From positions 1,488,001-1,552,000 of the forward strand of contig NZ_JADEXS020000001.1 of the NCBI RefSeq assembly GCF_015207005.2: DNA of 64,000 nt, written 5' to 3'. Numbering within the stretch: the first letter of the stretch is position 1; every line of letters begins with the position of its first letter. The position numbers were made by a program, and so were the translations under genes. Below are positions 29,058 through 56,206 of this stretch, piece after piece. The notes beneath the pieces are model-generated. The model searched no databases. It had not been told where the DNA came from and was given only the letters and a program-made list of their open reading frames with translations. The stretch is from Desmonostoc muscorum LEGE 12446. GTDB lineage: Bacteria; Cyanobacteriota; Cyanobacteriia; Cyanobacteriales; Nostocaceae.

Positions 29058-29401
29058 GTGGAAGCAATTCCTTTCGATGTCGAAGTTTACGAAACTCAAG
29101 AGGGTAGGGTTCCATTTTCCGAATGGTTGACTTCTCTTAAGGATACTCAGGCAGCCGCCAGAATTTTGCTGAGACTTGATCGGACTAAACAAGGAAATCT
29201 GGGCGATCATAAGCTAATTGCAGATGGTATGTATGAGTTTCGGATTGATACGGGTGCAGGATATCGGGTGTATTTTGGGCGAGTGAGTAACTGGATAATT
29301 GTGATTCTTTGGGGCGGGGATAAAAGTTCCAACAGCGAGATATTGAAAAAGCGCAACAGTACTGGATGGATTACAGGAGTCGGGATGATGCCCAAAAGTA
29401 G
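29058..29401 (+). pseudogene. HigB/phage Gp49-like (HI1419-type) toxin gene, frameshifted
   Basis: From the GTG at 29058 the frame encodes VPFSEWLTSLKD, RLDRTKQGNLGDHKLI, YEFRIDTGAGYRVYFG and VILWGGDKSS, the RelE-superfamily addiction-module killer pattern. After codon 91 the expected tail is found only in the +2 frame: from 29330 it reads QQRDIEKAQQYWMDYRSRDD and AQK, then TAG at 29399-29401. Adding one C to the CC at 29329-29330 restores a complete toxin of about 115 residues. As it stands the toxin frame runs on into the antitoxin frame, giving an apparent 204-residue fusion. The toxin end overlaps the antitoxin start by 14 bases, as usual for such pairs. Confidence 0.75.
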
Positions 29402-29672
29402 AAGCTACGAGCAAGAGTTGATGGGATATTTGCAAGATTCAGAACGGGCAGTTGCCTATCTCAACGCTGCTTTGGAAGAGGGTGAGGAGGAGTTGTTTTT
29501 AGTGGCATTGCAAAATGTGGTAAAGGCAAGTGGCAAAGGGGCTGACTGGTTTGAGCAGCTAGAAAATGTTCAGCCTGACTCAGCAGATAGAACGGCTCAT
29601 CAATTGTTTATGTTACTTAAAGAGCTAAGACTGGGATTAAAACCAATGGAATTTCCCAAAGTGGTAAGCTAA
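29388..29672 (+). CDS. HigA-like (HI1420-type) addiction-module antitoxin
   Basis: 94 residues from the ATG at 29388: MPKSRSYEQELMGYLQDSER, then AVAYLNAALEEGEEELFLVALQNVVKASG. This is the HTH-type antidote pattern of the downstream HI1420 family, which binds its toxin and represses the operon. The C-terminus departs from the usual helix-turn-helix (WFEQLENVQPDSADRTAHQL), so DNA binding is not assured. The start is in the same frame as the beginning of the upstream toxin only because of the toxin's frameshift. The intact antitoxin beside a broken toxin is part of a pattern in this window. Confidence 0.75.
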   Translation: MPKSRSYEQELMGYLQDSERAVAYLNAALEEGEEELFLVALQNVVKASGKGADWFEQLENVQPDSADRTAHQLFMLLKELRLGLKPMEFPKVVS

Positions 29673-29773
29673 TAATCATTCAAATTGCATCAGAGCGTCT
29701 TTCTGAGGCTAAGGATTATGCAACTTAAAGGCGGATTAGCTTATAAGTGTTGACTTAATTTATATAAAATTTA

Positions 29774-29796
29774 ATTCCCCCAAAAAAAGGGGGAAT
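29774..29796. terminator. hairpin between convergent genes
   Basis: ATTCCCCC, a seven-A loop and GGGGGAAT form a perfect 8-bp stem between the antitoxin gene (plus) and the lyase gene (minus). On the minus strand it is followed by a U-rich run (TTAAATTTTAT), so it best fits a terminator for the lyase gene and may work both ways. Confidence 0.6.
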
Positions 29797-29821
29797 ATGT
29801 TGTCTATATATTGTCTTCAAA

Positions 29822-30388
29822 CTAACTCGATACTGAACTAGCCGCCTCGGAAGTTTTCGCCGCAGGTGGAAAGCCACCCAAGCGAATCTCGGAAGTGAAG
29901 GAAGTGATACTAAACCCACCAGAGCGCTTTAAGACATTCACCCGCATTCGCAAATTGGGACTAGCAAACCACAGACGCTCCTCAGACTTCATGGTTTCAT
30001 CTTCTGTGATTAGAGTCAAAGCACCATCACTATCTATCTGATAGCGTCCGGGAACTGGAGTTTTCTCGCCATCAACTATTTGCCTCAATAACTTGCCTTG
30101 GGCCGGATTATCGGCATCAGGTATTGAAACTAAGACACTTGAGCCACTATGTTTTACTTGCTCCCGTTCCATTGTGCCGTTCCAGGTGACTTTGAGACCA
30201 TAGGAGGTGGAACTAGGATTAATTCCGTACTGTTGACACAATTTGCTCACTTCTGGATGATCTGCGGCTAGTGTCTCAATGATGGTGTCTGACTTGCCAT
30301 GTTCAGATTGATTCAAAGCTAAATGATGAATAGTACGATGGGAAAACCATTTACCAGTACTTAACTCAAAAAATTCTTCAATATTCAT
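29822..30388 (-). CDS. CpcS/CpeS family phycobiliprotein lyase
   Basis: 188 residues of the lipocalin-like CpcS/CpeS family: [20 protein letters not shown] start, a beta-barrel region with [36 protein letters not shown], and [20 protein letters not shown] near the C-terminus, where the family binds bilin. These lyases attach phycocyanobilin to Cys84-type sites on phycobiliproteins. The particular subtype (CpcS, CpeS1, CpcS-III) cannot be fixed by eye. It lies 75 bases downstream of the NblB-like gene on the same strand, which places chromophore attachment next to phycobilisome turnover. Confidence 0.88.
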
Positions 30389-30463
30389 GAATGAAATTAC
30401 CCTGCATCAAAATGCAAAAATTCCCACTTAATTATTATTAAAAGGTAAGAGGAAGCTTTAATA

Positions 30464-31144
30464 TTAAGCTTGATTACCTATTTCCTCAAGCCTCTTGAGG
30501 CTAATTCTCGCTGCTTCGGAAACGTTGGAATGACTGTCTTTTTCCATGTATTTCAAAGCTGAGACGCTCTTGGGAGTGGGAAGATTGCCCAAAGCTTCTG
30601 CCAGACGCTGCCTAACTAACCAATCATCGGATTGGGCAAACCGCAGGATACTATCGACAGACTCAACGTCTCGAATTTCTCCGAGTGCAGAGATTGCAGC
30701 CTCTTGCAATACTAGTTCTTTACTATCGAGGGCTTGCAGCAGAATTTGACGGGCACGAGGGTCTTTAATGTTACCGAGAGATACGGCTGCACTAAAGCGC
30801 ACTAACCAATCAGTATCTTCATAAAATGCCCGTGAGAGTACCTCAAAAGCTCTGGCATCACCCAAATATCCTAAAGCACCAGCGGCATCAGCACGAATGC
30901 CATAATCTGGGTCATTTTCGAGAATTCGCACCAAAATTTGATAACATTCTGGCGTAGGCTTGACTCCAAGGGCAAATATTGCCATCGATCGCAGTTGCAA
31001 AGATTCGTCGTCTAGTACTTTTTTAATCAAAGGTACTGCATCCTCAGGAGGAACATGACGCAGATTAGCAAGGGCTACCATGCGATCGCGCAGATTCGGA
31101 CTTTCTAACTGAGTAGAAATTTCTTCTATGCTTAAAGCTGTCAT
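30464..31144 (-). CDS. nblB: HEAT-repeat protein, NblB-like
   Basis: 226 residues made of about six HEAT/PBS-lyase repeats (IRADAAGALGYLGDARAFEVL, VRFSAAVSLGNIKDPRARQIL, LQEAAISALGEIRDVESVDS). NblB proteins share this repeat with the CpcE/CpcF lyases and are needed for phycobilisome degradation under nutrient stress, probably by detaching or binding the chromophore. Length and position beside a CpcS/CpeS lyase support NblB over CpcE/F, which come as a pair in the cpc operon. The symbol is an inference from family and context. Confidence 0.75.
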   Translation of the reverse strand: MTALSIEEISTQLESPNLRDRMVALANLRHVPPEDAVPLIKKVLDDESLQLRSMAIFALGVKPTPECYQILVRILENDPDYGIRADAAGALGYLGDARAFEVLSRAFYEDTDWLVRFSAAVSLGNIKDPRARQILLQALDSKELVLQEAAISALGEIRDVESVDSILRFAQSDDWLVRQRLAEALGNLPTPKSVSALKYMEKDSHSNVSEAARISLKRLEEIGNQA

Positions 31145-31414
31145 TTAGTTCAAAACGTTTTCTTTACTTATCTTAATTTACCTGATCCCTTCATCACGCT
31201 GTCGCCACAGTGAAGTAGGAGTTTGGCGACTTTACAAAATAGCTCGATTATGAGTCAAAAATAAATAAATGTTACTTACCGCGAGATTGTGTATTGAATT
31301 TAGCAGTAAGATTTAACACTTAGCTGTGCCTGAGGTATGAAGAGAAGACTTGGTAAGGGACGTAGGTTAAGGGTGTGACTGTGAAATACAGCGTTAACCT
31401 TTAGGAGAATCACG

Positions 31415-31966
31415 ATGGTTCAACTTAGCGAACGTCCCGGCACCAAAAAAATCACAAATTTGCACGATAAGTTCATCTATGAACTTGGTGCGATGTACGA
31501 TGCTGAACATCGCTTTTTGGAAGCTCAGCAGCTAATGTGGCAGTGTAGCCACCATAACCAGTTGAAGTCCTTGCTCGAAACCCATATTCGGGAAACCGAG
31601 CAGCAAATTAGAAATCTGGAGCAGTCATTTAGCAGCTTGGGACAGCAACCACAGCGGGTGACTTGTGATGCTGCGGCTGGTTTGATTAGTGATGCTCAAA
31701 AATTAACACTATTGGCTGCTGATAATCCTAAAATTGTCGAGCTGATAATGGCAGGAGCGCAGGCTAAAGTCGAACAATTAGAAATTGCTTGCTATCGCGG
31801 CTTGATTAAAGGTGCTGAGCAGATGGGGCAAAACGAAGTCGTGCGACTGCTACAGCAAAACTTGCAGCAGGAAGAACAAACAGCTCAAAAGATTGAGCAG
31901 CACATGCCACAGTTACTTCAAGAAGCAAAATCTGCTGAAATTTCAGGTGGTAATAGGTCTCGGTAA
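31415..31966 (+). CDS. DUF892 (YciE-type) ferritin-like protein
   Basis: 183 residues, four-helix bundle pattern. Carboxylate/His pairs are visible in FIYELGAMYDAEHRFLEAQ, LETHIRETEQQIRNLEQ and LLQQNLQQEEQTAQKIEQHM, matching the DUF892 ferritin-like family, which is stress-induced in many bacteria. The metal content and reaction are unknown. A good Shine-Dalgarno AGGAG lies before the ATG. A strong hairpin terminator follows at 32000. The gene stands alone between divergent and convergent neighbours. Confidence 0.88.
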   Translation: MVQLSERPGTKKITNLHDKFIYELGAMYDAEHRFLEAQQLMWQCSHHNQLKSLLETHIRETEQQIRNLEQSFSSLGQQPQRVTCDAAAGLISDAQKLTLLAADNPKIVELIMAGAQAKVEQLEIACYRGLIKGAEQMGQNEVVRLLQQNLQQEEQTAQKIEQHMPQLLQEAKSAEISGGNRSR

Positions 31967-31999
31967 TTTTTTGTAATATTTATGTAGTGTAAAATTTCC

Positions 32000-32034
32000 A
32001 ACAAAAGCAAGGTCACAAGTGCCTTGCTTTTGTT
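32000..32034 (+). terminator. strong rho-independent-type hairpin after the DUF892 gene
   Basis: AACAAAAGCAAGG and CCTTGCTTTTGTT form a perfect 13-bp stem with a 9-base loop, 34 bases after the stop codon. The 3' arm ends in a T-rich run, fitting a terminator. Confidence 0.8.
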
Positions 32035-32107
32035 ATTGCTGTATCAGCACTGCTTTGAATGAACTACAAAAAGTAAAAAAATAGCGATCGTTGACAGGAT
32101 ACATATT

Positions 32108-33019
32108 TTATTGGTGCTGTTGCAACCACGCTACTAAATCAGCTTCAGTGGAAAAATCTAGTAAGGCTTCCGCTAAGTCTTCTAACTGAGTTAACGATAA
32201 CCCACTCAGCTGCTGTTGTAATTCTGGAGTAATTACACCGATTCGTCTTGTTAATTGACGCTGGATAATTTTCAATTCTCCTTGTTGCAGACCTTGTTGT
32301 ATTCCTTCTTCCATCCAACTGGTGACAATTTGCATAACTACCTCTTGTTGAGTTGGTTCAAATTGAGCAATTTCAGCCTGGAAAATTTCTGTTTATTGGG
32401 CATTTAGTCGTAGGTAGGTGTCAATAAAGCCAGAAATCAATTGCATCCGCGCTGGATCTAACTGCAACGTAGCTAACAGACGGAGACACTCAGATTTTAC
32501 TCTGGGGCGGTCTTTTGGCGCTATGTTCATTTTAGCCATGAGTGCGCTAGCTACGGGATTTTGTTGTTGCAAAAATTCTCGCCAATTCAAGCGATTCAAC
32601 TGGATGACATCATAGTTGAACTGCAACACAACTTTATTGGGAAATACTACCTGATGAAGATTGGGTTCGGCTTTCTTGGGACTATCGTAAGAAAATAAGG
32701 CGATAGGATAAACTGGCAGGGCGTATTTTTCGTATAATCTAGCGAAGTAGCGATACATTCGTAAATCAAAAGCTTCTTGATAATAAGCTTGATGTTCTAG
32801 ATGTACGAGAAAAAATGATTCTTGCCCTCTAAATCTGGCTTTTACTACTATGTCAGTTTCATATTTTTCTCCAGCGGTGACATCGGTAAATACTTCTTTG
32901 TCGAGAAAGGTGATGGTGTCTCGTTCTAGATATGCGGTTATCTCTGGAAAGAATAATTGCAGGAATTCCCAGAAGAAAGTGGTTAGTAGTTCTTTGAATA
33001 AGCGATCGTGGTCTATCAT
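32108..33019 (-). pseudogene. Rpn/DUF4351-type PD-(D/E)XK nuclease gene interrupted by a stop codon
   Basis: From ATG 33019 (MIDHDRLFKELLTTFFWEFL) the frame encodes the Rpn-type nuclease core: EKYETDIVVKARFRG and FFLVHLEHQAYYQ give the D ... ExQ active site. It stops at TAA 32393-32395 after YLRLNAQ. Reading straight through that stop in the same frame gives TEIFQAEIAQFEPTQQEVVM and then the DUF4351-type tail (GELKIIQRQLTRRIGVITPE ... LVAWLQQHQ) ending at 32108. A single CAA-to-TAA change explains the split. The N-terminal piece keeps the catalytic residues. Relatives are often multi-copy in Nostocales and linked to DNA recombination. Confidence 0.8.
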
Positions 33020-33217
33020 GTCAAATTTATACCATGTCTTTGATTGATGAGCGATCGCTTTTGATCTAAGACATAAAGAAGTTTTAGTAGCAGGCAACTC
33101 TTGGATAGGCTAAGCATGGGGAGACTCGACTGGTGATACCTGCGGCAAGCTACGCTAAGCCGCACTCTTAAATAACAGAATTAATGTTATAATTATATAT
33201 CCATAAAGGAGAAGATT

Positions 33218-33673
33218 ATGAGCAATCAATCTGTTCCTAAAACCAGTAATCTTTATGCAGAAGATTATCATTTGTGGTTGGAACATACTGTTTATTTATT
33301 AAAGAATAAAATTTTTTTAAATTTAGATTTAGAAAATTTAATTGAAGAAATTGAAAGTATGGGGAGAAGTGATAAAAATGCTTTAAGGAGTAATCTTAGA
33401 GTGCTTCTAATGCACCTCCTCAAATATAAATTTCAACCCCAAAACCGATCAAATAGCTGGTTATATACAATTTATGAACATCGTCAAAGATTACAAGAAG
33501 CATTTTTAGATAGTCCTAGCTTAAAATTATACTACACGGAAGTTTTTGATAATTGTTACCAACACGCTCGAAAAGAAGCATCTATTGAAACAGGACTTCC
33601 CCTGTCTATTTTTCCTAAAGAGTATCCTTTTTCTGTCGATCAAACGCTAGATTTTGATTTCTTCCCAAATTAA
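33218..33673 (+). CDS. DUF29 family protein
   Basis: 151 residues with the DUF29 pattern: TSNLYAEDYHLWLEHTVYLL, then LIEEIESMGRSDKNALRSNL, LLMHLLKYKFQPQNRSNSWL, and YQHARKEASIETGLP near the end. All-helical and cytosolic. The function is unknown; the family is expanded in cyanobacteria. It has a clear AAGGAG ribosome-binding site. The gene is visibly AT-rich compared with the core genes, in keeping with an accessory strip. Confidence 0.88.
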   Translation: MSNQSVPKTSNLYAEDYHLWLEHTVYLLKNKIFLNLDLENLIEEIESMGRSDKNALRSNLRVLLMHLLKYKFQPQNRSNSWLYTIYEHRQRLQEAFLDSPSLKLYYTEVFDNCYQHARKEASIETGLPLSIFPKEYPFSVDQTLDFDFFPN

Positions 33674-33865
33674 TCATCATCCTTTTTTTGTCTCGCGCAG
33701 AGGCGCAGAAAATAATGTGGAAACCAAATAAATTCTCCAAGCACTCCTAAACTTAAGTGTAAGCGATCGCCTAAAGATAGCTGAATCAACACTGCAATTG
33801 GTTCTTCAAGAAAAAGTTTATAAAGTCAGGTTAGGCGGTAATAACTTTGTCAACGCACTAACCAT

Positions 33866-34084
33866 TTAAGCTACTTTACAAACGGTCGGCTTTGGAAGTG
33901 CTTCTCCTGTGGCTTCGTAAGCCATTATTAGTGACTCCAATGCTTGAGTACCATTTGCAACAGCTTCTTCATAAGTATCGCCATGCGTCCGAAAAGGCTG
34001 TCCAGGGAAATCGGGAAATCCAACTAAAAAGCAGTTGTCTTCATCAGACCATTGAATTAGCATTTGATATTTAAATTTGCTCAT
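33866..34084 (-). CDS. hicB: HicB family antitoxin
   Basis: 72 residues: MSKFKYQMLIQWSDEDNCFL then VGFPDFPGQPFRTHGDTYEEAVANGTQALESL, the partial RNase H-like HicB fold. It lacks the C-terminal DNA-binding domain found in longer HicB proteins, as is common for this short type. The ATG overlaps the end of the upstream hicA gene by 14 bases, the standard operon layout with hicA first. The frame is complete, whereas its toxin partner is frameshifted. Confidence 0.88.
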   Translation of the reverse strand: MSKFKYQMLIQWSDEDNCFLVGFPDFPGQPFRTHGDTYEEAVANGTQALESLIMAYEATGEALPKPTVCKVA

Positions 34085-34302
34085 CTTCTTGATTGTCTCG
34101 CTGTTTTTCTTCTATTTCTTGAATTGCTTGTTGAACGTCTTTCTCTTGATAGCGTTTTGCGTCTGAACTGTCTTTACCAGAAACCGTGAGTTTTCCTGCA
34201 TATAGAAGGATGTATCCAGTTTGTATGACTTCCTTTACCTGGGATTTCTGTAAAATTCGCCCTTAGCAACATTTGTTTGAGTTCCCTGATTTTCTTTGGC
34301 AT
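34071..34302 (-). pseudogene. hicA: HicA mRNA-interferase toxin gene, frameshifted
   Basis: From ATG 34302 the frame reads MPKKIRELKQMLLRANFTEI and then PGKGSHTNWIHP, the HicA dsRBD-like fold with the catalytic His in GSH. It then shifts into SICRKTHGFW and a stop at 34174-34176 (42 residues). Removing one base near 34206 (CCTTCT to CCTCT on the coding strand) restores LYAGKLTVSGKDSSDAKRYQ and EKDVQQAIQEIEEKQ, ending at 34071 and overlapping hicB. The reconstructed protein is about 76 residues, normal for the family. The truncated product keeps the His but loses the last strand and helix. Confidence 0.8.
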
Positions 34303-34591
34303 TTTCAGGTCTAGACGCTTAATTAATCCCAAGATATCGCACTTACAGCATATCGGAGAATGTGATACTCCAAGACGAGTCCAGGTCGCGTTTCAACAAA
34401 AAGCAAGCGGTCGCACTGTGGAGTTTTGGCGATCGCTCTTTTTAACGAACCACAGAGGCGCAGAGAACACAGAGGAAGAAGAGGGCGATCGCACGCTGGA
34501 GATTTTGCAGGTGATCGCCTTTTTTACCAATATTTACCAGTATAGATGTACTATAATCTATAAACTAACTCTAATAAGGAGAAACCACAAT

Positions 34592-34894
34592 ATGTTCGGT
34601 AATGTAAGTCCTAATTATTATTCATTGGCGCTGGCCTATCAAACGGCTCAAAATGCAGCCCAATTAACTAAAATTCAAGCAGTATGGGAAAAGGGTTTTA
34701 TTCTTCCAGACTGTGATCCAAGGATATGGCGGAAAGATCAGTTTGGAAGATTGATAAATAGATATAAGTATGGAAAGCGTCAATCTACTTATGGATGGGA
34801 AATTGACCATATAATACCAAAATCTCAAGGGGGCAGCGATCATATTTCCAACTTACGCCCCCTACAATGGTACATCAATATTGTTAGACAATAG
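34592..34894 (+). CDS. small HNH endonuclease
   Basis: 100 residues from the ATG at 34592, chosen because AAGGAG lies 10 bases before it; the same frame is open further upstream but without similarity. The C-terminal half is an HNH core: GWEIDHIIPKSQGGSDHISN (His73, then His84 and Asn87), followed by LRPLQWYIN. The N-terminal half (YYSLALAYQTAQNAAQLTKI) is helical. It lacks zinc-binding Cys pairs. A second, unrelated HNH gene follows 61 bases downstream on the same strand. The target is unknown; such genes occur in mobile or defence settings. Confidence 0.85.
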   Translation: MFGNVSPNYYSLALAYQTAQNAAQLTKIQAVWEKGFILPDCDPRIWRKDQFGRLINRYKYGKRQSTYGWEIDHIIPKSQGGSDHISNLRPLQWYINIVRQ

Positions 34895-34955
34895 GTTAGA
34901 TTCCTCTGTTGCTCTACCCCACCGACAATAAATTTTAACTGCAACAAGGCAAACA

Positions 34956-35675
34956 ATGGCTAAACGATCTAAGTCAGGAAGATGTGTACATTGTTTACAA
35001 AATGTGGAATATTTGACACGAGATCATATATTCCCCTTTGCTTGGTATCCAGATAATACTCCTGAAAATTTGCAAAGATGGACAATTCCATCATGCAAAA
35101 AATGCAACGAGCAATATGGTAGATTGGAAGAAGATCTACTCTTGAGACTAGGTTTGTGTATTGATCCTGAAGATGCAAAGTCAAGCGGAATTACAGATAA
35201 GGTATTACGTTCAATAGATCCACACTATGCAAATGATAGAAGAGAAAAACGAATAAGAGAAAGAAAAAGAGAGAAGATAAAACAAGAAATAGTTAAATGG
35301 GAAGCAATTCCACCTAGAGGTTTACATCCAAATTTTCAAGTACAAAGCAATGTTTATTATCCAGAATATGCATCTATTCCAATATCAGCCGATAAGTTAG
35401 AACGTTTGTGTCATAAGATAGTTCGCGGCATAACTTATTTTGTTGATCAGACTTTTATAGAAAACAATTTTGAGATTCAATTTCTTACTGTAGATGATAA
35501 AGCTGCTCAACCCATACTAAAAAAATATCAACAACATTTGAACACATACGATCGCCCAGGTATTAAAGTAGTACGTGCTATGACAAGTGAAAATCCAGAT
35601 GCTGGTTTTTATGCTATAGAAATATGGGGCAGATTAAAAATGTACGCCGTAGTAACGCCAAAGAAATTGTCATGA
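34956..35675 (+). CDS. HNH-type endonuclease-like protein with CxxC zinc knuckles
   Basis: 239 residues. The N-terminus is a zinc-stabilised HNH finger: C10-V-H-C13, then LTRDHIFPFAWYPDN (His24) and IPSCKKCNEQYG (C47, C50, Asn51). After a strongly basic helix (RREKRIRERKREKIKQE, about 92-108) comes a domain of about 120 residues with no recognised family (CHKIVRGITYFVDQTFIENN ... FYAIEIWGRLKMYAVV). The basic linker suggests nucleic-acid binding. The gene is AT-rich. It may form a pair with the preceding small HNH gene. Confidence 0.75.
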   Translation: MAKRSKSGRCVHCLQNVEYLTRDHIFPFAWYPDNTPENLQRWTIPSCKKCNEQYGRLEEDLLLRLGLCIDPEDAKSSGITDKVLRSIDPHYANDRREKRIRERKREKIKQEIVKWEAIPPRGLHPNFQVQSNVYYPEYASIPISADKLERLCHKIVRGITYFVDQTFIENNFEIQFLTVDDKAAQPILKKYQQHLNTYDRPGIKVVRAMTSENPDAGFYAIEIWGRLKMYAVVTPKKLS

Positions 35676-35744
35676 TAAATTCTATAAATAGTTTATGCAA
35701 GATAAACGCCAAAATCGAAATTTGCAAAAGTCACTTTATTTGAC

Positions 35745-35784
35745 TAAAAAACTTGCCTCAGAAGCATCACACCCCCAAGGCAAG
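35745..35784 (-). terminator. rho-independent-type terminator of the pnt operon
   Basis: On the minus strand CTTGCCT and AGGCAAG form a stem around a 19-base loop, followed by TTTTTT, 55 bases after the pntB stop. Orientation and U-run fit termination of the pnt transcript. Confidence 0.7.
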
Positions 35785-35838
35785 CAAACTCTCTAATTCT
35801 TTCTTTACTTCGCGCCCTTTGCGCCCTTTGCGGTTCGT

Positions 35839-37245: not shown

Positions 37246-37535
37246 GCCTTAATCTCCTTCTTCTTGAACATTTGCAGCATTCTGTCTGTAACTAGAAAGC
37301 CACCGACAACGTTGACTGTAGCTAGTATCACAGCAATTAAACCGAGAATCACTGACACACTTGTTTCTCTAGCACCTGAGGCCACAATTGCCCCAAGTAC
37401 CGAAATGCCAGAAATTGCATTTGAGCCTGACATTAAAGGTGTGTGTAGCGTCGGTGGTATTTTGTTGATGACTTCAAAGCCGATAAAAGACGCCAGAACA
37501 AATACAAACAAAGCAGCAAGTAATGCCTCTGTCAT
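37242..37535 (-). CDS. pntA2: NAD(P) transhydrogenase subunit alpha, membrane part
   Basis: About 97 residues from the ATG at 37535 (MTEALLAALFVFVLASFIGF), preferred over an extension to 37634 whose upstream residues are translated from the ATTTTGGATTTT repeat. Three or four membrane helices with PPTLHTPLMSGSNAISGI and LGLIAVILATVNVVGGFLVT, then a basic tail. This is domain II of the alpha subunit encoded separately, as usual in cyanobacteria. It overlaps pntB by four bases. Confidence 0.93.
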   Translation of the reverse strand: MTEALLAALFVFVLASFIGFEVINKIPPTLHTPLMSGSNAISGISVLGAIVASGARETSVSVILGLIAVILATVNVVGGFLVTDRMLQMFKKKEIKA

Positions 37536-37574
37536 GAAATAAAACTCCTCTTGTAAATGGGCATAGGGCGATTC

Positions 37575-37645: not shown

Positions 37646-37660
37646 ATTACCCCCCAGTCC

Positions 37661-40109: not shown

Positions 40110-40110
40110 G

Positions 40111-41262: not shown

Positions 41263-41263
41263 T

Positions 41264-47658: not shown

Positions 47659-47661
47659 TAC

Positions 47662-47857: not shown

Positions 47858-47886
47858 ATTGACCCCTTGATAATCAGGTATTAATT

Positions 47887-48399: not shown

Positions 48400-48404
48400 G
48401 TATT

Positions 48405-48473
48405 GGGCATTGGGCTGGGGGAAAAAACTCTTCTCCCCTACCTCCCCACTCCCTACTCCCCACTCCCCAAGTT
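48405..48473. repeat. degenerate CCCCACT/GGGCATT heptamer repeats
   Basis: Short runs TTGGGCATTGGGC and CTCCCCACTCCCTACTCCCC in the gap between the SH3 and peptidoglycan-binding protein genes, a decayed STRR block. Confidence 0.7.
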
Positions 48474-48559
48474 AACTAGTTGTAAAGAATCATACAAAAA
48501 ATAAATATTACACCGAGCAAATGGTATAATCTTGTATGGTCATAACTTGAAAAAAACAA

Positions 48560-49963
48560 GTGAAAACAGGGGTAGATAGCTCTGTAACCGAGCTTGCCTC
48601 AGTCTTTGAGGCATCTGAAAATATCAAGGTTGTTCATCTGCCAGTTATTTTAAAATTTTTGAATTGGAAAAATTTACCTAGCCCTGCTGCGATGCGTCTT
48701 TTGTCTGTAGCATTGACTATGGGAATTCTCAGTATTGCTGGGGAAGTTTCAGCAGCTCAGAAAATAGGAAGTAACGGTTCACAAGTTGCCAATAGCCAAA
48801 GATGTTTAAAAAAATTAGGTTACTTTAAAGGCCCGGTGACAGGCAAGTTTGCTAGTTTGACTCAGAATGCTGTGATCAAATTTCAACAAGCCAATAGACT
48901 ACCTGCGATTGGGGTTATAGGTCCTAGTACTCAAAAAGCGTTGCAAAGAGCGTGTCAGAGTAGAGCCTCTAGTAGGAATGTTAATCGAAATTCGCAATCT
49001 TCAGTCAATGAATATCCTACTCTTTCTCAAGGCAACACTGGTGCAGCCGTGACTAAGTTGCAACAGCGTCTGAAGCAGCGGGGTTATTTTAATGCTAATC
49101 CCACCGGAAATTTCGGGCGAGTCACTAAAGATGCTGTGATTGCATTTCAGCGAAATGCTGGTATATCTGCCAATGGAATTGTCGGTCGGCAAACTTGGAA
49201 CGCACTACTAGGTTATTCTCAAGCTCCTGCTAGATCGAGTCTCTCCACTCAACAAATCAGAGAATTGCAAGAGCGTTTACGACAACTAGGCTACTTTAAA
49301 GCTAATCCCACTGGGAATACTGGCCCAGTTACCAGAGAAGCGATCGCCAAATTCCAACAAGATTATAGACTACCTGTGAATGGCGCAGCCAATACCCAAA
49401 TTTTGGCAGCAGTACGTCAAGCCTCAGCTGGTGGATATCCTACTCAACAACCAACTAGAAATTATCTCACTGTTGGCGATCGCTCAGATAATGTGAGATT
49501 AGTTCAAGACCGTTTGTCGCAATTGGGCTTTTTTAATGCCAATTCTGATGGCTATTACAGTGATTACACCAGAGAATCAGTGTTCGCATTCCAGCAATCT
49601 TCTCGACTCAATGCTACTGGAAATGTAGATTGGCAAACTTGGGAAGCATTAGGATTGAATAACTCGACTGCCAGTAATTATATTGAGACAAATCCCTATG
49701 TAGCACCTGTTACTAATGGTTATTTATTACCTGAAACTAACGGTAACATCTTAGCTGGTAACAATCGGTATACAGTTATCGTACCAATTTTTAGTAATGA
49801 TACTCTTACTAAGGTGCAACAATATATACCTTATGCTGTGGCAGAGGAATCGAATCTGGGCGATTATGTGAATGCTGGAGGATTTAGCGATCGCAAAGAA
49901 GCAGAAAGAATAACGAAAATGCTCCGCTCCTATGGTTTGGATGCACGGATTAAATACAATTGA
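48560..49963 (+). CDS. exported protein with four peptidoglycan-binding domains and a SPOR-like C-terminus
   Basis: 467 residues starting GTG. A hydrophobic export segment lies at about 45-68 (AAMRLLSVALTMGILSIAGE). Four PG_binding_1 modules follow, each with the LQxRLxxLGYF ... TGxxxxxTxxAVxxFQ ... G pattern, at about 73-135, 152-205, 230-280 and 302-360. The last 70 residues (YTVIVPIFSNDTLTKVQQYI ... AERITKMLRSYGLDARIKYN) resemble a SPOR domain, which binds denuded glycan. The protein is thus a cell-wall binder; no catalytic domain is visible. Confidence 0.88.
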   Translation: MKTGVDSSVTELASVFEASENIKVVHLPVILKFLNWKNLPSPAAMRLLSVALTMGILSIAGEVSAAQKIGSNGSQVANSQRCLKKLGYFKGPVTGKFASLTQNAVIKFQQANRLPAIGVIGPSTQKALQRACQSRASSRNVNRNSQSSVNEYPTLSQGNTGAAVTKLQQRLKQRGYFNANPTGNFGRVTKDAVIAFQRNAGISANGIVGRQTWNALLGYSQAPARSSLSTQQIRELQERLRQLGYFKANPTGNTGPVTREAIAKFQQDYRLPVNGAANTQILAAVRQASAGGYPTQQPTRNYLTVGDRSDNVRLVQDRLSQLGFFNANSDGYYSDYTRESVFAFQQSSRLNATGNVDWQTWEALGLNNSTASNYIETNPYVAPVTNGYLLPETNGNILAGNNRYTVIVPIFSNDTLTKVQQYIPYAVAEESNLGDYVNAGGFSDRKEAERITKMLRSYGLDARIKYN

Positions 49964-49969
49964 AGAAGA

Positions 49970-50150
49970 AGTCAGAATTCAGAATTCAGAATCACTTAGT
50001 ACAACATTTCATTAATTCGTAGCAAATTCTCTGCGCCCCTTTGCGTTTATCTTTGCGCCCCTACCCTACGGGAAGGCGAAGCGCCTATGCGTTTAAATTC
50101 CAACCCTCAATTCGCCACGATTTTACGCAAAGCTGTATTCTGAATTCTTA
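49970..50150. repeat. intergenic inverted-repeat region with dispersed repeats
   Basis: AGAATTCAGAAT repeats near 49977-49991 face ATTCTGAATTCT at 50136-50147. Inside are CTTTGCGCCCC repeats and CTACGGGAAGGCGAAGCGCC. The outer arms match the ends of the element at 23891-23947. Confidence 0.65.
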
Positions 50151-50154
50151 CCAA

Positions 50155-53100
50155 TTAAATTGACAAACTCAACTGCGAACCTTGTTGAGTTTTATTCACC
50201 TCAATCCTAGCTTGGAAAGCTTCTTTGAGGTGAGGCATGTGGGTGACGGTGAGAATGCAAGCGAAATCAGAAGCGATCGCATTAATCGCTGCAACTAAGC
50301 GATCGCATCCTTCAGCATCCTGTGTACCAAAACCCTCATCTACAATTAACAATTGCAACGCCGCCCCCGCCCGTTGTGCTAATAATTTCGCCAACGCCAA
50401 ACGGATGGCAAAGTTAATTCTAAAAGCTTCTCCACCAGAATAAGTTTCATAAGCCCGCGTTCCTCTGGAATCGGCGATTAAAATATCCAAGGTGTCTATC
50501 AACTTGGCGTTTTTCTTAGTTGATTTACCATGACGCCCAGCTTTTTGAGTAATAAACTGTACATGAAATTGATTAGCACTCAACCGCGAAAGTAATTGAT
50601 TTGTCTCAGCTTCCAGTTGTGGTAAGACATTTTCAATCATCAGTGCTTGGATACCATTTTTACCAAAAGCTTGCGCTAATTCCTGATAAACACGGTATTC
50701 CTGCTTGCAAGATTGTAGTTGTTTGTACTGTTGTTCGTACTGAATTTGCAGCGTTTCCAGTTGATGCGCCAACTGTTCTAAACGTCCCAACTTGGCTATT
50801 TGCTCATCGAGTTGGCGTCTGCGTATTGCTAGCTGCTGCTCTAGGGCTTGAATTTGGGCAGATGGGTTGGCTGTTGCTTGGAGTTGCTCAATTATGCTTT
50901 CGATTTGGCTGGCGAGTTTTTGCCACTCTGTTATTCTGGCGCCTCTGGAATCCTCTAATTCTTTTAATCTCGTCTGGAGTTGGGGATATTGCTGCTGGGC
51001 TGCTAAAAGTTGCTGATATCGCAAATGCCAAGATTGAGCTTTCTTAACAGCCATACGGAGGTTGTTGTGCAGCTCCAAACTGTAGCCAATTTCAACAATG
51101 TGACGTTCCAGAGCCGCAATTTGCTTGGCACATTCAGAATTAGTTTGTTCTTGGTGGATTCTGGCTTGTAATTCGGCAATAGTAGCTAGCAGTTCTGGTT
51201 TTCGGGCTGCTAGTTGCGCTTGTCGCTTAGTAGCGTCTTTAATCTGGCTTTGTTTAATTTCTGCCCAGCGCCACCGCTCAACTTCGCTGCGAGCTAGGGC
51301 GTGATCTTGTTCATTATAATTAACGTGTTGTAGATATTGGTCTAACTTTCGGAGTTCGGCTTGTTGATTGGGAGCGTAATCACCAGCTTGTAGCGATCGC
51401 TCTAAATGTTGTTTTTCCGCAGCAATGTGTTCTAATTGATGTTGGACATCAGTTGTGGCTTCTAACTGTGCCGCCAATTGTCCCCGCTGTTCGCGTAAAC
51501 CATCATAAATTGCCAATTGTTGCGATATTTCTCGATATTCCTGCCTCAGTACCTGAATTTCTCTATCAGACACAGCCATTTGTTCCCGCACTACCCAAAA
51601 CTGTCCTTGAGTATCATCTAACTCAGTTTGGGTTTTTTCCACCACACGGCTCCAATGATGTTCATCCAGTGGACGTTCGCACAACGGACAAAGAGCATTG
51701 GGATTTTGGAGCATTTGTAGTTTTTGCTCTAATTCTCCCAGCAGTTTTTCATAATCCCGTTGGTGAGCTTGTAGACGTTCAATAAAGTGACGCCTTTCTT
51801 GCCCTTTTTCCTGGACTCGTTGCAAATAAACCCGCTTTTTCTCCAATTCCTCAATCTGGATTGCTACATCCATCACCGCTTGTTGCAATTGCGGTTGGCG
51901 TCGGTGCTGGCGTTGCAATTGGTTTTCTGTATTTTGCAGTTGTTCGAGCCGCGCTACTAAACCAGCATGAGTCCGATCTAATTGGCTTTGTAAAGTTGCT
52001 CGTTGTTGCAACAAAGGAGTCACCTGCATTTGCAACTGATCTAAATGAGCAAGATGGTGACGTGCTGCGCCCAGTTGGGACAAAGCAGCTTCAACTTCGC
52101 CGGATTTGGTGAGAGTTTGCTGAATTTCTCGCTCTTGTTGCTGCAAAGCTTCGATTTGGGCTTGGGCTTGTTGCAGTTGTCGTTCGATTTCCTGAATTTG
52201 TTTGGTAAGCTGTTGTTGTTTTTGTTGGCGAGTTTGTCCGGCGCGGCTATATTCTTCAAATTTGGCAGCAAAAGCTTCTTCTTGAGATTGCAGACTTTGA
52301 TATTGGGCATATCCAGCTTTAATTTCAGCTTCTTGATGTAAGATTTTTTCTATCTCTGATAGCTGATAACCAATCGCTAACTGCTCTTGTTGTAGGCGAT
52401 CGCAGTCTTGGTTAAGATTTTGATATTGCTGCTTGACAAAACTCAGTTGTTGTTCCCAATTTTGGCGCTGGTGCTGGACAACTTGCAAACTTTGTAATTG
52501 AATATTGTCAAAAGCTTGTACCTGTTGTAGTTGATTCAGTTCAGCTTCTAACTGATCCCTTTGCGCTTCGGTTGTCTGGCGTTGTTGCAGCTGAACTTTA
52601 ATCGAATCCAAAGAACGCTCTAGTTCCTCAGCCCGTGCTTTAAACTGACGAGAAGATTCCTTTGCCCGTTCTTCCAAATCATCATATTGATTTAGTTTCA
52701 ACAACTGGGCTAAAATTTCTTTGCGTTCCGTAGGTCGTTTGAGCATGAATTCATCTGCACGACCTTGACGTAAGTAAGCAGAATTAATAAAAGTATCGTA
52801 ATCGAGCTTAATGTGTTCTAAAATCGAATCTTGGGTTGCTCTTACCCCTTTGCCCGTGAGTGGACGAAACCCAGAGGGTGTTTCTATTTGAAATTCCAGG
52901 ACGCTAGTAGCTCCCCGAATTCGAGTACGAATCACCCGATATGTTTGCTGGTTACTTTGGAAAGTAAAATCAACCCGAACTTCTTTCGCGCCAGAATAAA
53001 TAACATCGTCTTCAGTACTGGCGCGGCTTTCACCCCAAATTGCCCAAGTGATTGCTTCTAAAAGAGAAGATTTACCCGCACCATTGGAACCAGAAATACA

Positions 53101-53181
53101 AGCCGTATGCAAACCGCGAAAATCTAAAGTTGCATCACGGTAACTGAGAAAGTTTTTGAGGATAATTTGTACTGGGATCAT
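50155..53181 (-). CDS. sbcC: SbcC/Rad50-type exonuclease ATPase subunit
   Basis: 1008 residues: N-terminal ATPase half with Walker A GSNGAGKSSLLEAI (about 32-45), then two long Gln-rich coiled coils. They flank a zinc hook CPLCERPL near residues 497-500 that dimerises two molecules. The C-terminal half has the signature TYSGGEAFRINFAI and Walker B LLIVDEGFGTQDAEG. With SbcD (Mre11) it processes DNA ends and hairpins. SbcD is not encoded in the window. The start MIPVQIILKNFLSYRDATLD is typical of the family. Confidence 0.95.
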   Translation of the reverse strand: MIPVQIILKNFLSYRDATLDFRGLHTACISGSNGAGKSSLLEAITWAIWGESRASTEDDVIYSGAKEVRVDFTFQSNQQTYRVIRTRIRGATSVLEFQIETPSGFRPLTGKGVRATQDSILEHIKLDYDTFINSAYLRQGRADEFMLKRPTERKEILAQLLKLNQYDDLEERAKESSRQFKARAEELERSLDSIKVQLQQRQTTEAQRDQLEAELNQLQQVQAFDNIQLQSLQVVQHQRQNWEQQLSFVKQQYQNLNQDCDRLQQEQLAIGYQLSEIEKILHQEAEIKAGYAQYQSLQSQEEAFAAKFEEYSRAGQTRQQKQQQLTKQIQEIERQLQQAQAQIEALQQQEREIQQTLTKSGEVEAALSQLGAARHHLAHLDQLQMQVTPLLQQRATLQSQLDRTHAGLVARLEQLQNTENQLQRQHRRQPQLQQAVMDVAIQIEELEKKRVYLQRVQEKGQERRHFIERLQAHQRDYEKLLGELEQKLQMLQNPNALCPLCERPLDEHHWSRVVEKTQTELDDTQGQFWVVREQMAVSDREIQVLRQEYREISQQLAIYDGLREQRGQLAAQLEATTDVQHQLEHIAAEKQHLERSLQAGDYAPNQQAELRKLDQYLQHVNYNEQDHALARSEVERWRWAEIKQSQIKDATKRQAQLAARKPELLATIAELQARIHQEQTNSECAKQIAALERHIVEIGYSLELHNNLRMAVKKAQSWHLRYQQLLAAQQQYPQLQTRLKELEDSRGARITEWQKLASQIESIIEQLQATANPSAQIQALEQQLAIRRRQLDEQIAKLGRLEQLAHQLETLQIQYEQQYKQLQSCKQEYRVYQELAQAFGKNGIQALMIENVLPQLEAETNQLLSRLSANQFHVQFITQKAGRHGKSTKKNAKLIDTLDILIADSRGTRAYETYSGGEAFRINFAIRLALAKLLAQRAGAALQLLIVDEGFGTQDAEGCDRLVAAINAIASDFACILTVTHMPHLKEAFQARIEVNKTQQGSQLSLSI

Positions 53182-53743
53182 TCACGCTATGGCGCCACAT
53201 CTACTTTTAATAATTAAGAGTACAGATGCACTGTTTGTTAGTTTAGCTATCTAGATATCAGGTTTCTAGTCTTGAAGACATGAAATTTACAAAAATTTAC
53301 AATTTGATGAGTGAATTTTTTCTTGTTGCATGAATAATTTTTGCTCTATGCAGAAAAAATTAAACAGTCTTGGAGATTGATAAGGAGATATTATTTCTTG
53401 ACGGCAGTCGCACGCCACTTGCTTCAACCGGGGGAACCCCCAGCAACGCAGTGGCTCCTCAAGTCGGGAAACCCGCCACCGCGCTGCCTCCGCTATGCGT
53501 CTCGAAACAAATGTTTTTACCTCGTTCCATAAATAAATAATGGTGTTTAAACCATTTTTCTTTTTCTTTATGAATGCCTTTTAAGTTTTTACTTTTGCCT
53601 TGTTTGGTCAAGCGATCGCATTCTTGAGATCGTGACGATGGAAAAGCGATGTCTACGACGGGCTACGCCTACGCAATTCATTTGATGTAGAGTAAAAAAA
53701 AGCGATGTCTACGACGGTTTACGCCTACGCACTGTGGGTAAGT
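53182..53743. other. repeat-bearing intergenic region upstream of sbcC
   Basis: 562 bases. 53399-53510 carries a GC-rich dispersed repeat with hairpins GGGGGAACCCCC and GTCGGGAAACCCGCC. 53646-53674 and 53702-53730 are two copies of the GCGATGTCTACGACGG...TACGCCTACGC repeat 27 bases apart. An open frame at 53341-53532 is made mostly of the first repeat. No gene seen. Confidence 0.6.
53646..53730 (+). repeat. two direct copies of the GCGATGTCTACGACG repeat
   Basis: Copies at 53646-53674 and 53702-53730 differ by two bases (GGGC versus GTTT). A third, diverged copy is at 54273-54301 on the other side of the RelBE-like module, so the module is flanked by this repeat family. Confidence 0.85.
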
Positions 53744-54004
53744 TCAGAATCTATAAACATCTCTACGATGCTTTATTTTGACCACCGTCACTAATAATAA
53801 ACTATCTTGTATTTCGTAAATGATTCGATATTTTTCCAATCTGACTCTGTATAAATTATCCGAACCTTCTAATTTTTTCACCCCATCAGGACGAGGCTCA
53901 AAAGCAAGTTATTCCAATTTAGCAACCAGTTTTTGTTGAACATCACGGGGTAATTTTTTTATCTGTCTTTTTGCAGCTGGAGCAATTTCTACTTCGTAAC
54001 TCAC
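53744..54004 (-). pseudogene. RelE-family toxin gene with an internal stop codon
   Basis: From GTG 54004, overlapping the antitoxin stop, the frame reads SYEVEIAPAAKRQIKKLPRD, VQQKLVAKLE and then TAA at 53909-53911 (codon 32). Past the stop the same frame continues LAFEPRPDGVKKLEGSDNLY, RVRLEKYRIIYEIQDSLLLV and TVVKIKHRRDVYRF to TGA at 53744. That is a complete RelE/ParE fold of 86 residues with its C-terminal KIKHRRDVYR active-site region. A CAA-to-TAA change explains the stop. Reinitiation is unlikely to give an active toxin. Confidence 0.82.
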
Positions 54005-54198
54005 AAACCTAATTCTCTTTTGAGTTCACCCAAGGAAATCGTACCAACCTCTTCTGCTTCTTTTAGTGCAGCTTTTGCATCTTCTAAATCTTCTTTATCT
54101 TCTTTGGCTTTCAAAAAAAGTAAAAAGTCCAGAACCTCGTAAATGATTTCTTCTGGTACATTTTCGATCTCTTCAATTATTTTTTGTTTGGCATTCAT
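54001..54198 (-). CDS. RelB-like/DUF2281-type antitoxin
   Basis: 65 residues: MNAKQKIIEEIENVPEEIIY, then EVLDFLLFLKAKEDKEDLED and a short tail GTISLGELKRELGL. The helical, acidic start with a single hydrophobic helix (LDFLLFLK) is the DUF2281 antitoxin pattern, and LKRELGL is a typical toxin-binding end. Its stop TGA overlaps the GTG start of the downstream relE pseudogene by three bases, confirming the operon. The antitoxin frame is intact. Confidence 0.8.
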   Translation of the reverse strand: MNAKQKIIEEIENVPEEIIYEVLDFLLFLKAKEDKEDLEDAKAALKEAEEVGTISLGELKRELGL

Positions 54199-54771
54199 AA
54201 ATTCAGCTTTATGCTGGTTGACTCTATTATACGATGATGATACTGAAGTCTTGCTAACTCAAGTTAGAAATTGCGATGCCTGTGGCGGGCTGCGCCAACG
54301 CACTTCATCATGGAGAACATCGCACTGTGGGTAGTGACAAAGGCTTACGCAGTTTCTCATGTATGAGAATGAGAAAGCGATTATACCGTTTATTTGTAAA
54401 GCTGCATATAATTCACCCCCCGATGCCTTGGAGGGACTACAGGGGGGTATTATTATGTGCATCTTCATACAGAATTGGTATTACTTGACTAGGTATCGAC
54501 AGTCCAATATATTTACCTAGAGCAATGAAAAAGTTCTGTATGTGATCGCGATAAATTGCCAAATTGGCAGTTAAAATCAGCACAAATGTCATGCTGAGAT
54601 GATATCCTGGCGATCGCTTTGCTGTTCTCCAAGTTGCTAAACCAGCCACATCATCAGTACCGCTTTGGGTAATTGGTAAATCCTATACCCCAAGCGTTTG
54701 CTTTTCGAGAAGTTGGTGAAATTGCATTGCGATTAAAAATCCGAAATTTCAAATACTCAGGCAGTAACCCG
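54199..54771. other. intergenic region with repeat copy and short palindromes
   Basis: 573 bases. 54273-54301 is a diverged copy of the GCGATG...CGCCAACGC repeat, and TTCTCATGTATGAGAA near 54353 is palindromic. Open frames on both strands here have no ribosome-binding site or family pattern. The methyltransferase frame is open back to a TTG at 54673, but similarity appears only from 54772. Confidence 0.5.
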
Positions 54772-55734
54772 ATGATTGAAAAAACAGTAAAAGTAATAAA
54801 AGGCGAATTATTGCCAGAGGGAGATTATGTTTCACCAGGATTTTCTACTATTCAGCCAGATTCATGTTTTCCGAATATGATTTTGGGAAATACATATAAT
54901 AGTTTTTGGTTTTACCTGCGGCGGGATATTGCTCATAACTGGTACGTGGATAGACGACAGCAGGATACAGGATTTGTCAGCAGAGATGAAGCTCATATTC
55001 TTTACAATACAGCCTTAAAATTTCAGGGAAAAAAAGCTTTAGAAATAGGCTGTTGGATGGGTTGGTCAGCTTGTCATTTAGCTTTAGGAGGGGTGGAGTT
55101 AGATGTTATCGATCCGATGCTATCCACAGAATTATTTTCTGAAAGCGTCACAGATTCACTGAAGTCAGCTGGCGTCAAAGAATCTGTAAATCTCATACCA
55201 GGATATAGCCCTCAAGCAGTAGAAGAGTTAGCAAATAAATTTGAACGTAAATGGTCATTGATATTTATAGATGGTCACCACGAAACACCAGCACCACTGA
55301 ATGACACAATGATTTGCGAACAATTTGCAGAACCAGATGCTTTAATTTTATTTCATGATTTAGCTTCTCCCGATGTTGGTGAAGGATTGGACTACTTGAA
55401 AAACAAAGGGTGGAACACAATGGTATATCAAACTATGCAAATCATGGGAGTTGCATGGCGGGGAAATGTTGAGCCGGTAATACATCAGCCAGATCCTGAA
55501 ATTAACTGGCGTTTACCTCCACATTTGCAACATTATTCTGTTAGCGGTTCAATCTCAAATGTGGCGGAAGATAAATCTGGAAAAATGCTCAAATCAGTCC
55601 GACCAAATACTTTATTAACTGAAGCAAAGTTATTGTCGTTGTATAGTCACGTAGACCAATTATATTATTATATTTCTTGGCTGCCACGAATGTTCAAGCA
55701 GGCGATCGCCAGAAAGAAACCTCAGAAAAGCTGA
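54772..55734 (+). CDS. class I SAM-dependent methyltransferase
   Basis: 320 residues from the ATG at 54772 (MIEKTVKVIKGELLPEGDYV). The SAM-binding motif I is KALEIGCWMGWSACHLAL at about 118-135, followed by ELDVIDPML. A motif LIFIDGHHETPAPLNDTMIC then resembles the Methyltransf_24/cephalosporin-hydroxylase-like group, and ALILFHDLASPDVGEGLDYL completes the core. The acceptor is unknown; such genes often modify glycans or natural products. It stands alone beside decayed toxin loci. An upstream in-frame TTG would add 33 unsupported residues. Confidence 0.85.
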   Translation: MIEKTVKVIKGELLPEGDYVSPGFSTIQPDSCFPNMILGNTYNSFWFYLRRDIAHNWYVDRRQQDTGFVSRDEAHILYNTALKFQGKKALEIGCWMGWSACHLALGGVELDVIDPMLSTELFSESVTDSLKSAGVKESVNLIPGYSPQAVEELANKFERKWSLIFIDGHHETPAPLNDTMICEQFAEPDALILFHDLASPDVGEGLDYLKNKGWNTMVYQTMQIMGVAWRGNVEPVIHQPDPEINWRLPPHLQHYSVSGSISNVAEDKSGKMLKSVRPNTLLTEAKLLSLYSHVDQLYYYISWLPRMFKQAIARKKPQKS

Positions 55735-55801
55735 ACATCTTGATGGGATGGGCAAATAGCCCGTCCTGCTATTGTAAAATTGCTAATTGCGATCGTTTGA
55801 C

Positions 55802-55867
55802 CTAGACCAACAAAAATGTACTAATTAGCACATTAGTATCAAAAACAAACCGTCGATTATTCTTCAT
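55802..55867 (-). pseudogene. N-terminal remnant of a PIN-domain toxin
   Basis: From ATG 55867, overlapping the end of the antitoxin frame, 21 codons read MKNNRRFVFDTNVLISTFLL V and stop at 55802-55804. RFVFDTNVLIS is the first strand and first catalytic Asp of a PIN-domain RNase toxin; intact members have about 130-140 residues. Nothing of the rest is found downstream in any frame to 55740. The toxin gene has lost about 85 percent of its length. Confidence 0.72.
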
Positions 55868-56206
55868 CATTCAAAATGGATTCTAAGATTTCAGGCGTTA
55901 ATCCTCGCTCTTGTGCTTCAAGGCTTGCTTTATCCATCGTGTTTTTTAAACGTGCAATCGTCTCTTCTCTCTTCGTTGTAAATTGAGACTGCATAATTGC
56001 TGCAATCTTAAGTTGCAATTGTTCACGCTCTTCTTCAGTGGCATTGCGGTATGCCTCTGCTAAGCTAATCAGCATTCAAGTTGCATAATCAGGGCGGGCA
56101 AGATGCCCACCCCACAAGATATTGAGAAAATTTTCATCTGCAAATTAGATGTGTTTTAGCTTACCTCAGAGGGAACTTTGATAGTAATTTCGTCTTTAGT
56201 AATCAT
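55857..56206 (-). pseudogene. antitoxin gene of the PIN module, split by a MITE
   Basis: The 5' piece from ATG 56206 reads MITKDEITIKVPSEV and stops one codon into the element at 56156-56158. The 3' piece reads AEAYRNATEEEREQLQLKIA ... LTPEILESILNDEE. Removing 56063-56161 and one TA joins them in frame as IKVPSEV-AEAYRNATEEE, the usual antitoxin sequence of this PIN-linked family. The surviving open frame (55857-56075, 72 residues) uses an ATG at 56073-56075 that lies inside the inserted element, so a shortened antitoxin with MLISL at its start could still be made. Confidence 0.78.
56063..56161. mobile_element. 99-bp MITE inserted in an antitoxin gene, TA target duplication
   Basis: Ends AGCTAATCAGCATTCAAG... 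(56063) and ...ATGTGTTTTAGCT (56161) are imperfect 23-base inverted repeats, about 16 matches, with identical six-base tips AGCTAA/TTAGCT. TA occurs directly outside each end (56061-56062 and 56162-56163). The centre holds GGGCGGGCAAGATGCCCACCCC, an imperfect palindrome. No coding capacity. TA duplication fits mobilisation by an IS630/Tc1-type transposase supplied elsewhere. Confidence 0.85.

What the first reader, a model, noticed from the sequence alone, without database searches (positions are those of the whole stretch)
29058..56206. Every toxin of four toxin-antitoxin modules is broken, while three of four antitoxin frames are intact
Seen by reading the alternative frames: HigB-like (frameshift at 29329-29330), HicA (frameshift near 34206), RelE (stop at 53909-53911) and PIN (cut to 21 codons at 55802) are all damaged. 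HigA-like, HicB and RelB-like antitoxins are open end to end. Four independent lesion types in the toxins and none in the three antitoxins is hard to explain by chance. Inference: antitoxins kept for anti-addiction or regulation, or selection against active toxins in this strain. The PIN module is the exception because its antitoxin is also split.
Basis: partly seen in the sequence, partly recalled or inferred. Interest (0 to 1): 0.85.

Follow-up and report, generated by a model that had tools for sequence, protein, structure and literature searches.

The report
Toxin-antitoxin modules that decay toxin first
Four small toxin-antitoxin gene pairs in this cyanobacterial stretch have lost their toxin genes while three of the four antidote genes stay open; the same order of loss is seen in related genomes and is what one expects, since losing the antidote first would harm the cell.

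Summary
The lesions are real. HigB (frameshift), HicA (frameshift), RelE (stop codon) and PIN (cut to 22 codons) are broken; HigA, HicB and RelB are open; the PIN antitoxin is split. All four modules are absent from the syntenic sites of the one same-species genome held. Intact relatives of each toxin exist; a HicAB copy about 99% identical has an intact toxin, so that lesion is recent. The asymmetry is not peculiar to this strain: among 135 distinct related loci (window copies excluded), 97 have both genes intact, 34 a broken or missing toxin beside an intact antitoxin, 4 both genes bad, and none an intact toxin beside a broken antitoxin. Strain-wide selection against active toxins is not supported: 20 of 25 PIN-profile matches in this genome are full length, 4 of 10 ParE/RelE-like loci have an intact toxin, and an intact HigB paralogue exists. 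Whether orphan antitoxins are kept by selection is unresolved: one substitution test suggested it, a stricter one did not. Best reading: ordinary toxin-first decay of mobile type II modules, as the addiction logic predicts. Orphan antitoxins are already known to be common.

The parts
29058..29672 (+). single 204-codon ORF: HigB-like toxin N-terminal part fused in frame to HigA-like antitoxin by the lesion
29058..29330 (+). HigB-like toxin, N-terminal 91 codons
   Evidence: NCBIfam TIGR02683 91 bits, positions 6-80 of 95; Pfam PF05973 16.7 bits, below cut-off 23.9
29324..29401 (+). HigB-like toxin, C-terminal end left in another frame
   Evidence: open stretch 29324-29398 resembles the C-termini of relatives
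29385..29672 (+). HigA-like antitoxin, open; C-terminal half diverged from most relatives
   Evidence: PF21716 28.4 bits over residues 12-50; 91 of 217 family genomes match, most over residues 1 to 50-62
34174..34302 (-). HicA toxin, N-terminal piece (42 codons) before the frame change
   Evidence: PF07927 21 bits, below cut-off 27; intact HicA in relatives
34071..34205 (-). HicA toxin, C-terminal piece in another frame
33866..34084 (-). HicB antitoxin, open, 72 codons
   Evidence: PF15919 29.6 bits; identical protein in G110
54001..54198 (-). RelB-like antitoxin (DUF2281), open, 65 codons
   Evidence: PF10047 26.7 bits, cut-off 26.5; 98% identical in G168
53909..54004 (-). RelE toxin, 31 codons and the stop
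53744..53908 (-). RelE toxin, part beyond the stop
   Evidence: PF05016 33.7 bits
55802..55870 (-). PIN toxin stub, 22 codons
   Evidence: intact PIN of relatives 137-142 aa, TIGR00305 92.4 bits
55857..56075 (-). PIN-associated antitoxin, second part
   Evidence: match in 85 of 217 family genomes
56156..56206 (-). PIN-associated antitoxin, first part, ends in a stop
   Evidence: uninterrupted antitoxins in relatives
29003..29767 (.). module 1 segment absent from same-species genome G170 (61 other bases there)
33063..34428 (.). module 2 segment (with a DUF29 gene) absent from this site in G170
53377..54478 (.). module 3 segment absent from G170 (223 other bases there)
55809..56247 (.). module 4 segment; G170 has about 8.1 kb of other DNA there

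Best explanation
These are four strain-variable type II toxin-antitoxin modules (HigBA, HicAB, RelBE-like, PIN-type) at an early stage of ordinary decay. A lesion in a toxin is tolerated or favoured because it removes the cost of the toxin; a lesion in the antitoxin while the toxin still works leaves a free toxin and is removed by selection. The toxin therefore goes first and the antitoxin stays open for a while, then may also decay, as in the split PIN antitoxin. Shown: the lesions, the presence/absence polymorphism and the 34-to-0 order of loss in relatives. Inferred: that toxicity of unpaired toxins is the cause.
For: Lesions. Same asymmetry in relatives: antitoxin-seeded loci, toxin broken or missing in 31 of 100 with an intact antitoxin (HicAB 6/29, RelBE 5/17, PIN 11/28, HigBA 9/26); toxin-seeded loci, antitoxin broken in 0 of 90 with an intact toxin (29, 12, 22, 27); distinct loci pooled 97 / 34 / 0 / 4. 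It holds in both gene orders: toxin gene first (HicAB, HigBA) 15 of 55, antitoxin gene first (RelBE, PIN) 16 of 45, so it is not polarity. In the same genome, of 10 ParE/RelE-like loci 4 have intact toxins, 5 a broken toxin beside an open antitoxin-like ORF (the window's included), 1 is a toxin remnant without one. Recent: HicB is identical in protein to that of G110, whose HicA is intact; G176 carries its own RelE frameshift; the HigBA paralogue has an intact toxin here and a broken one in same-species G170. Modules absent from G170 at the four sites.
Against: Toxicity of these proteins was not tested. An E. coli survey also reports many orphan toxins (PMC10790755, passages seen), so toxin-first loss is not universal under every definition. 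Of the 34 losses, 4 have no recognisable toxin and 2 (L125, L054) only a 12-residue remnant, so partner exchange is possible there; three groups of close relatives (L185/L196/L321, L206/L210, L135/L148; at least 93% antitoxin DNA identity) could share lesions, which would leave at least 30 events. Only the best-scoring loci of each search were classified, and the two seeded sets share loci.
Confidence: 0.85

Rival explanations
1. The open antitoxins are kept by selection after toxin loss, as anti-addiction factors against incoming related modules or as regulators of other modules in the genome.
For: RelB versus G168: 9 synonymous, 1 nonsynonymous change. Antitoxins beside broken toxins pN/pS 0.22 versus 0.20 beside intact ones. 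Looser piecewise test: toxin remnants 0.288 versus their antitoxins 0.181, ratio 1.59, 95% 1.21-2.26. Full-length relatives of HicA and HigB occur elsewhere in the genome.
Against: Stricter test with homologous positions and the same neighbour: 0.258 versus 0.224, ratio 1.15, 95% 0.90-1.49, not significant. Lesions look young, so there was little time for relaxation. The PIN antitoxin is split. HigA remnants of G106 and G047, beside which no HigB N-terminal part was found in the stretch held, are themselves damaged, and HigA versus G047 shows pN/pS 0.63 (versus G106 0.21).
Confidence: 0.25
2. This strain specifically selects against active toxins.
For: Four of four toxins in the window and 6 of 10 ParE/RelE-like loci of the genome, the window's among them, are damaged.
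Against: 20 of 25 PIN-profile matches are full length without stops, though not all need be toxins; intact HigB paralogue; full-length HicA matches at two other loci; relatives show the same pattern.
Confidence: 0.04
3. The lesions are sequencing or assembly errors.
For: Reads were not available.
Against: Errors would hit antitoxins alike. 7,215 aligned bases shared with G170 have six gaps: one of 11 bases outside ORFs, one of 12 bases (in frame) in a DUF4351 ORF, and four of one base, none in an ORF with a Pfam match (two, at 53354 and 54491, fall in short ORFs that were not scanned). One lesion is a stop codon and one a truncation.
Confidence: 0.04
4. The HigB-HigA fusion ORF is a functional product (self-neutralised toxin, or programmed frameshifting).
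For: One 204-codon ORF without a stop.
Against: None of the relatives whose toxin was read whole shows such a fusion; it lacks the toxin's C-terminal end; HigA keeps its own start; no classic slippery site was noted by eye.
Confidence: 0.03

Closest known systems
Orphan antitoxins of Klebsiella pneumoniae (PMC7192599, passages seen)
   Same: antitoxins without a working partner toxin, proposed as remnants or anti-addiction factors
   Different: there defined by similarity search across one species complex; here the damaged toxin can mostly still be read and the order of loss counted
Decay of chromosomal ccdO157 in E. coli (Mine et al. 2009; seen only as cited in PMC2654758)
   Same: degeneration of a chromosomal type II module within a species
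   Different: other family and host; the paper itself is not held
Orphan toxins and antitoxins in E. coli lineages (PMC10790755, passages seen)
   Same: abundant orphan antitoxins
   Different: also reports many orphan toxins; no intact toxin beside a broken antitoxin was found among the loci counted here

Membership tests
HicAB | HicA toxin (PF07927) | tested here: inconclusive
   window N-terminal piece 21 bits, cut-off 27; a relative's intact HicA 32.7 bits
HicAB | HicB-like antitoxin overlapping the toxin's end | tested here: met
   PF15919 29.6 bits; starts at 34084 while the toxin's last frame runs to 34074
RelBE/ParE | ParE/RelE toxin (PF05016) | tested here: met
   C-terminal piece 33.7 bits; a relative's intact toxin 48.4 bits
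RelBE/ParE | RelB-type antitoxin | tested here: inconclusive
   DUF2281 just over cut-off; NCBIfam VapB and RelB models 18-20 bits, below cut-offs
HigBA (HI1419/HI1420 type) | toxin TIGR02683 | tested here: met
   91 bits on the N-terminal piece, cut-off 62.85
HigBA (HI1419/HI1420 type) | antitoxin PF21716/TIGR02684 over its whole length | tested here: inconclusive
   PF21716 28.4 bits over residues 12-50 only; TIGR02684 18 bits, cut-off 53.7
PIN module (TIGR00305) | PIN domain toxin | tested here: not met
   the 22-codon stub has no Pfam match; a relative's PIN matches TIGR00305 at 92.4 bits
PIN module (TIGR00305) | uninterrupted antitoxin upstream | tested here: not met
   split in the window; a relative's antitoxin has no Pfam or NCBIfam match
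all four | toxicity of the toxin and neutralisation by the antitoxin | not testable with these tools
   needs expression experiments

The most novel reading that the evidence does not exclude
Nostocales genomes hold a standing stock of orphan antitoxins that stay under purifying selection after their toxins die, acting as acquired immunity against the steady inflow of related toxin-antitoxin modules; toxin loss would then be a conversion from selfish module to anti-addiction gene.
Probability: 0.2. Interest if true: 0.65.

Novelty: new member of a known kind. Interest (0 to 1): 0.35.

Why it matters
It turns an odd local observation into a countable natural experiment: among 135 relatives of four module families, the toxin alone is bad 34 times and the antitoxin alone never. 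This is what the addiction logic predicts, and the young orphan antitoxins of Nostocales are a set on which anti-addiction could be tested.

Tried and rejected
Considered and rejected: (1) HigA scrambled by a second frameshift: first suspected because most family matches end near residue 50-62; dropped after reading relatives, though its C-terminal half is diverged. (2) A polar effect of gene order: the asymmetry holds in both orders. (3) Strain-wide loss of toxins: intact toxins elsewhere. (4) Plasmid origin of the module 1-2 region: no match in the plasmid collection, megablast mode only. (5) Counting changes on tip branches with ancestral states: not available.

Rows dropped before counts: window copies (L122, L151, L242; L031); L032 and L033 (damaged HigA remnants in G047 and G106), which would add to 'both bad'; L170-L180 (distant RelB hits, 11 of 30 loci); L255-L270 (RelE-seeded hits under about 60% identity, 16 of 30, whose antitoxins may belong to other families); L338-L386 (49 of 80 PIN loci, more distant). 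L403, the HigBA paralogue of the window's own genome, is among the loci counted. With a shorter antitoxin query PIN gave 12 of 29 instead of 11 of 28. In the substitution tests, 26 and 27 of 32 broken loci (30 relatives and 2 of the window) passed the limits, and 91 of 97 intact loci.
Full report
What is there. The window is bases 1488001-1552000 of contig C1 of a 9.64 Mb genome in 12 contigs; the names of records with close relatives of the PIN toxin (mostly Nostoc and other Nostocales among the best) suggest a Nostoc-like cyanobacterium. The HigB frame changes near 29330 and, as an addition, runs on in frame into HigA as one 204-codon ORF. HicA is in two pieces in different frames. RelE has a stop after 31 codons. 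PIN ends after 22 codons. HicB, RelB and HigA are open; the PIN antitoxin is interrupted. Of the 87 ORFs listed, 40 further ones were scanned with Pfam and showed no further toxin-antitoxin module; the only toxin-named hit was a weak, sub-cut-off CptA match on a clear CCB1 protein.

Where it sits. One genome of the same species, G170, was available. It lacks 29003-29767, 33063-34428 and 53377-54478 at the syntenic sites, and has about 8.1 kb of other DNA in place of 55809-56247. All four modules are thus strain-variable. G170 has a different HicAB elsewhere, 86% identical in HicB, with both genes open. In 7,215 aligned bases shared with G170 there are six gaps: one of 11 bases outside ORFs, one of 12 bases in frame in a DUF4351 ORF, and four of one base, none of them in an ORF with a Pfam match; two of the four fall in short unscanned ORFs. 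This argues against a high error rate in the assembly but is no substitute for reads.

Relatives. HigA-like: 91 of 217 family genomes match; HicB: 206 of 217; RelB: 156 of 217; PIN antitoxin: 85 of 217 (own genome included). The closest HicB, in G110, is identical in protein (2 synonymous changes in 72 codons) and sits beside an intact HicA, so the HicA lesion is recent. RelB is 98% identical in G168, which has an intact RelE; G176, 97% identical, has its own RelE frameshift.

The test of asymmetry. Loci found with the antitoxin were asked whether the toxin is whole, and loci found with an intact relative's toxin were asked whether the antitoxin is whole, with similar limits on coverage. Toxin broken or missing given an intact antitoxin: HicAB 6 of 29, RelBE 5 of 17, PIN 11 of 28, HigBA 9 of 26, together 31 of 100. 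Antitoxin broken given an intact toxin: 0 of 29, 0 of 12, 0 of 22, 0 of 27, together 0 of 90. Fisher's exact test gives 1.7e-10, though the two sets share loci. Pooled and reduced to distinct loci: 97 both intact, 34 toxin bad and antitoxin intact, 0 the reverse, 4 both bad, of 135. Of the 34, 4 have no recognisable toxin and 2 only a 12-residue remnant; three groups of close relatives may share lesions, leaving at least 30 events if every such lesion were shared. Toxins are somewhat longer than antitoxins, which cannot give 34 to 0. Draft-genome errors would strike both genes.

This genome. With the ParE profile, 11 matches at 10 loci: 4 intact toxins, 5 broken toxins beside an open antitoxin-like ORF (the window's among them), 1 remnant without one (neighbours judged by position and length, without a family search). 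With the PIN profile, 20 of 25 matches are full length without stops; not all need be toxins. HicA has full-length matches at two other loci. A HigBA paralogue is intact here and has a broken toxin in G170. So there is no strain-wide ban on intact toxins, though the ParE/RelE-like ones are more often broken than not.

Are the orphan antitoxins kept? Antitoxins beside broken toxins have pN/pS 0.22 against their nearest intact relatives, those beside intact toxins 0.20. Comparing toxin remnants with their own antitoxins, a looser method gave 0.288 versus 0.181 (ratio 1.59, 95% 1.21-2.26; ratio at intact loci 1.11, 0.98-1.26); a stricter one, using homologous positions and the same neighbour, gave 0.258 versus 0.224 (ratio 1.15, 95% 0.90-1.49), while intact toxins and their antitoxins both gave 0.205. 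Toxin remnants are thus mildly relaxed, antitoxins not detectably so, and the difference between them is not established. HigA against the remnant of G047 gave 0.63, against that of G106 0.21.

Mechanism. The simplest account, and the one I commit to, is that a working toxin without its antitoxin is selected against, so decay starts in the toxin; the orphan antitoxin then drifts or finds a use. The order of loss is shown, its cause is inferred from the known logic of addiction (recalled; addiction, anti-addiction and decay are discussed in PMC2654758, passages seen).

Literature. Orphan antitoxins are reported as abundant in Klebsiella (PMC7192599, passages) and E. coli (PMC10790755, passages), with anti-addiction or remnant status proposed; the E. 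coli paper also reports many orphan toxins. The Biol Direct survey (PMC2701414, passages) notes that pseudogenes and truncations of TA genes are hard to detect and that solo toxins and antitoxins are many. The main text of the Synechocystis TA paper (PMC4963859, term search) does not hold the words frameshift, truncated or orphan. The searches (the last found nothing) listed no count of toxin-first against antitoxin-first loss in Nostocales; beyond the listings only passages of five papers were seen, so this is no proof of absence.

Noticed in passing
window 32108-33097 (-): A YhgA-like transposase (PF04754) / DUF4351 gene is split by a stop at 32390-32392; the syntenic copy in G170 has no stop there, so a non-TA accessory gene is broken too.
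   Followed up: yes
L393 (G170 site of module 4): About 8.1 kb in the same-species genome with a small ORF that holds a GG-type leader motif and a 723-codon stretch that reads like a peptide-exporting ABC transporter (both by eye).
   Followed up: no
window 29650-29720: The 3' flank of HigBA is a dispersed repeat with matches in many family genomes (query 651-721).
   Followed up: no
window 56058-56163: The stretch that interrupts the PIN antitoxin overlaps a dispersed repeat with four listed matches elsewhere in G170 (query about 3556-3664).
   Followed up: partly
L002, L003 (G106, G047): Damaged HigA remnants in another genus of the family: G106 with deletions, G047 without its N-terminal part; no HigB N-terminal part found in the stretches held.
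   Followed up: yes
L206, L210: Two relatives share a longer PIN-module antitoxin (77 instead of 68 codons over the same part) but differ in where the PIN toxin is broken.
   Followed up: partly
L207, L209: Two relatives have a PIN stub of 21 codons, much like the window's 22-codon stub.
   Followed up: no
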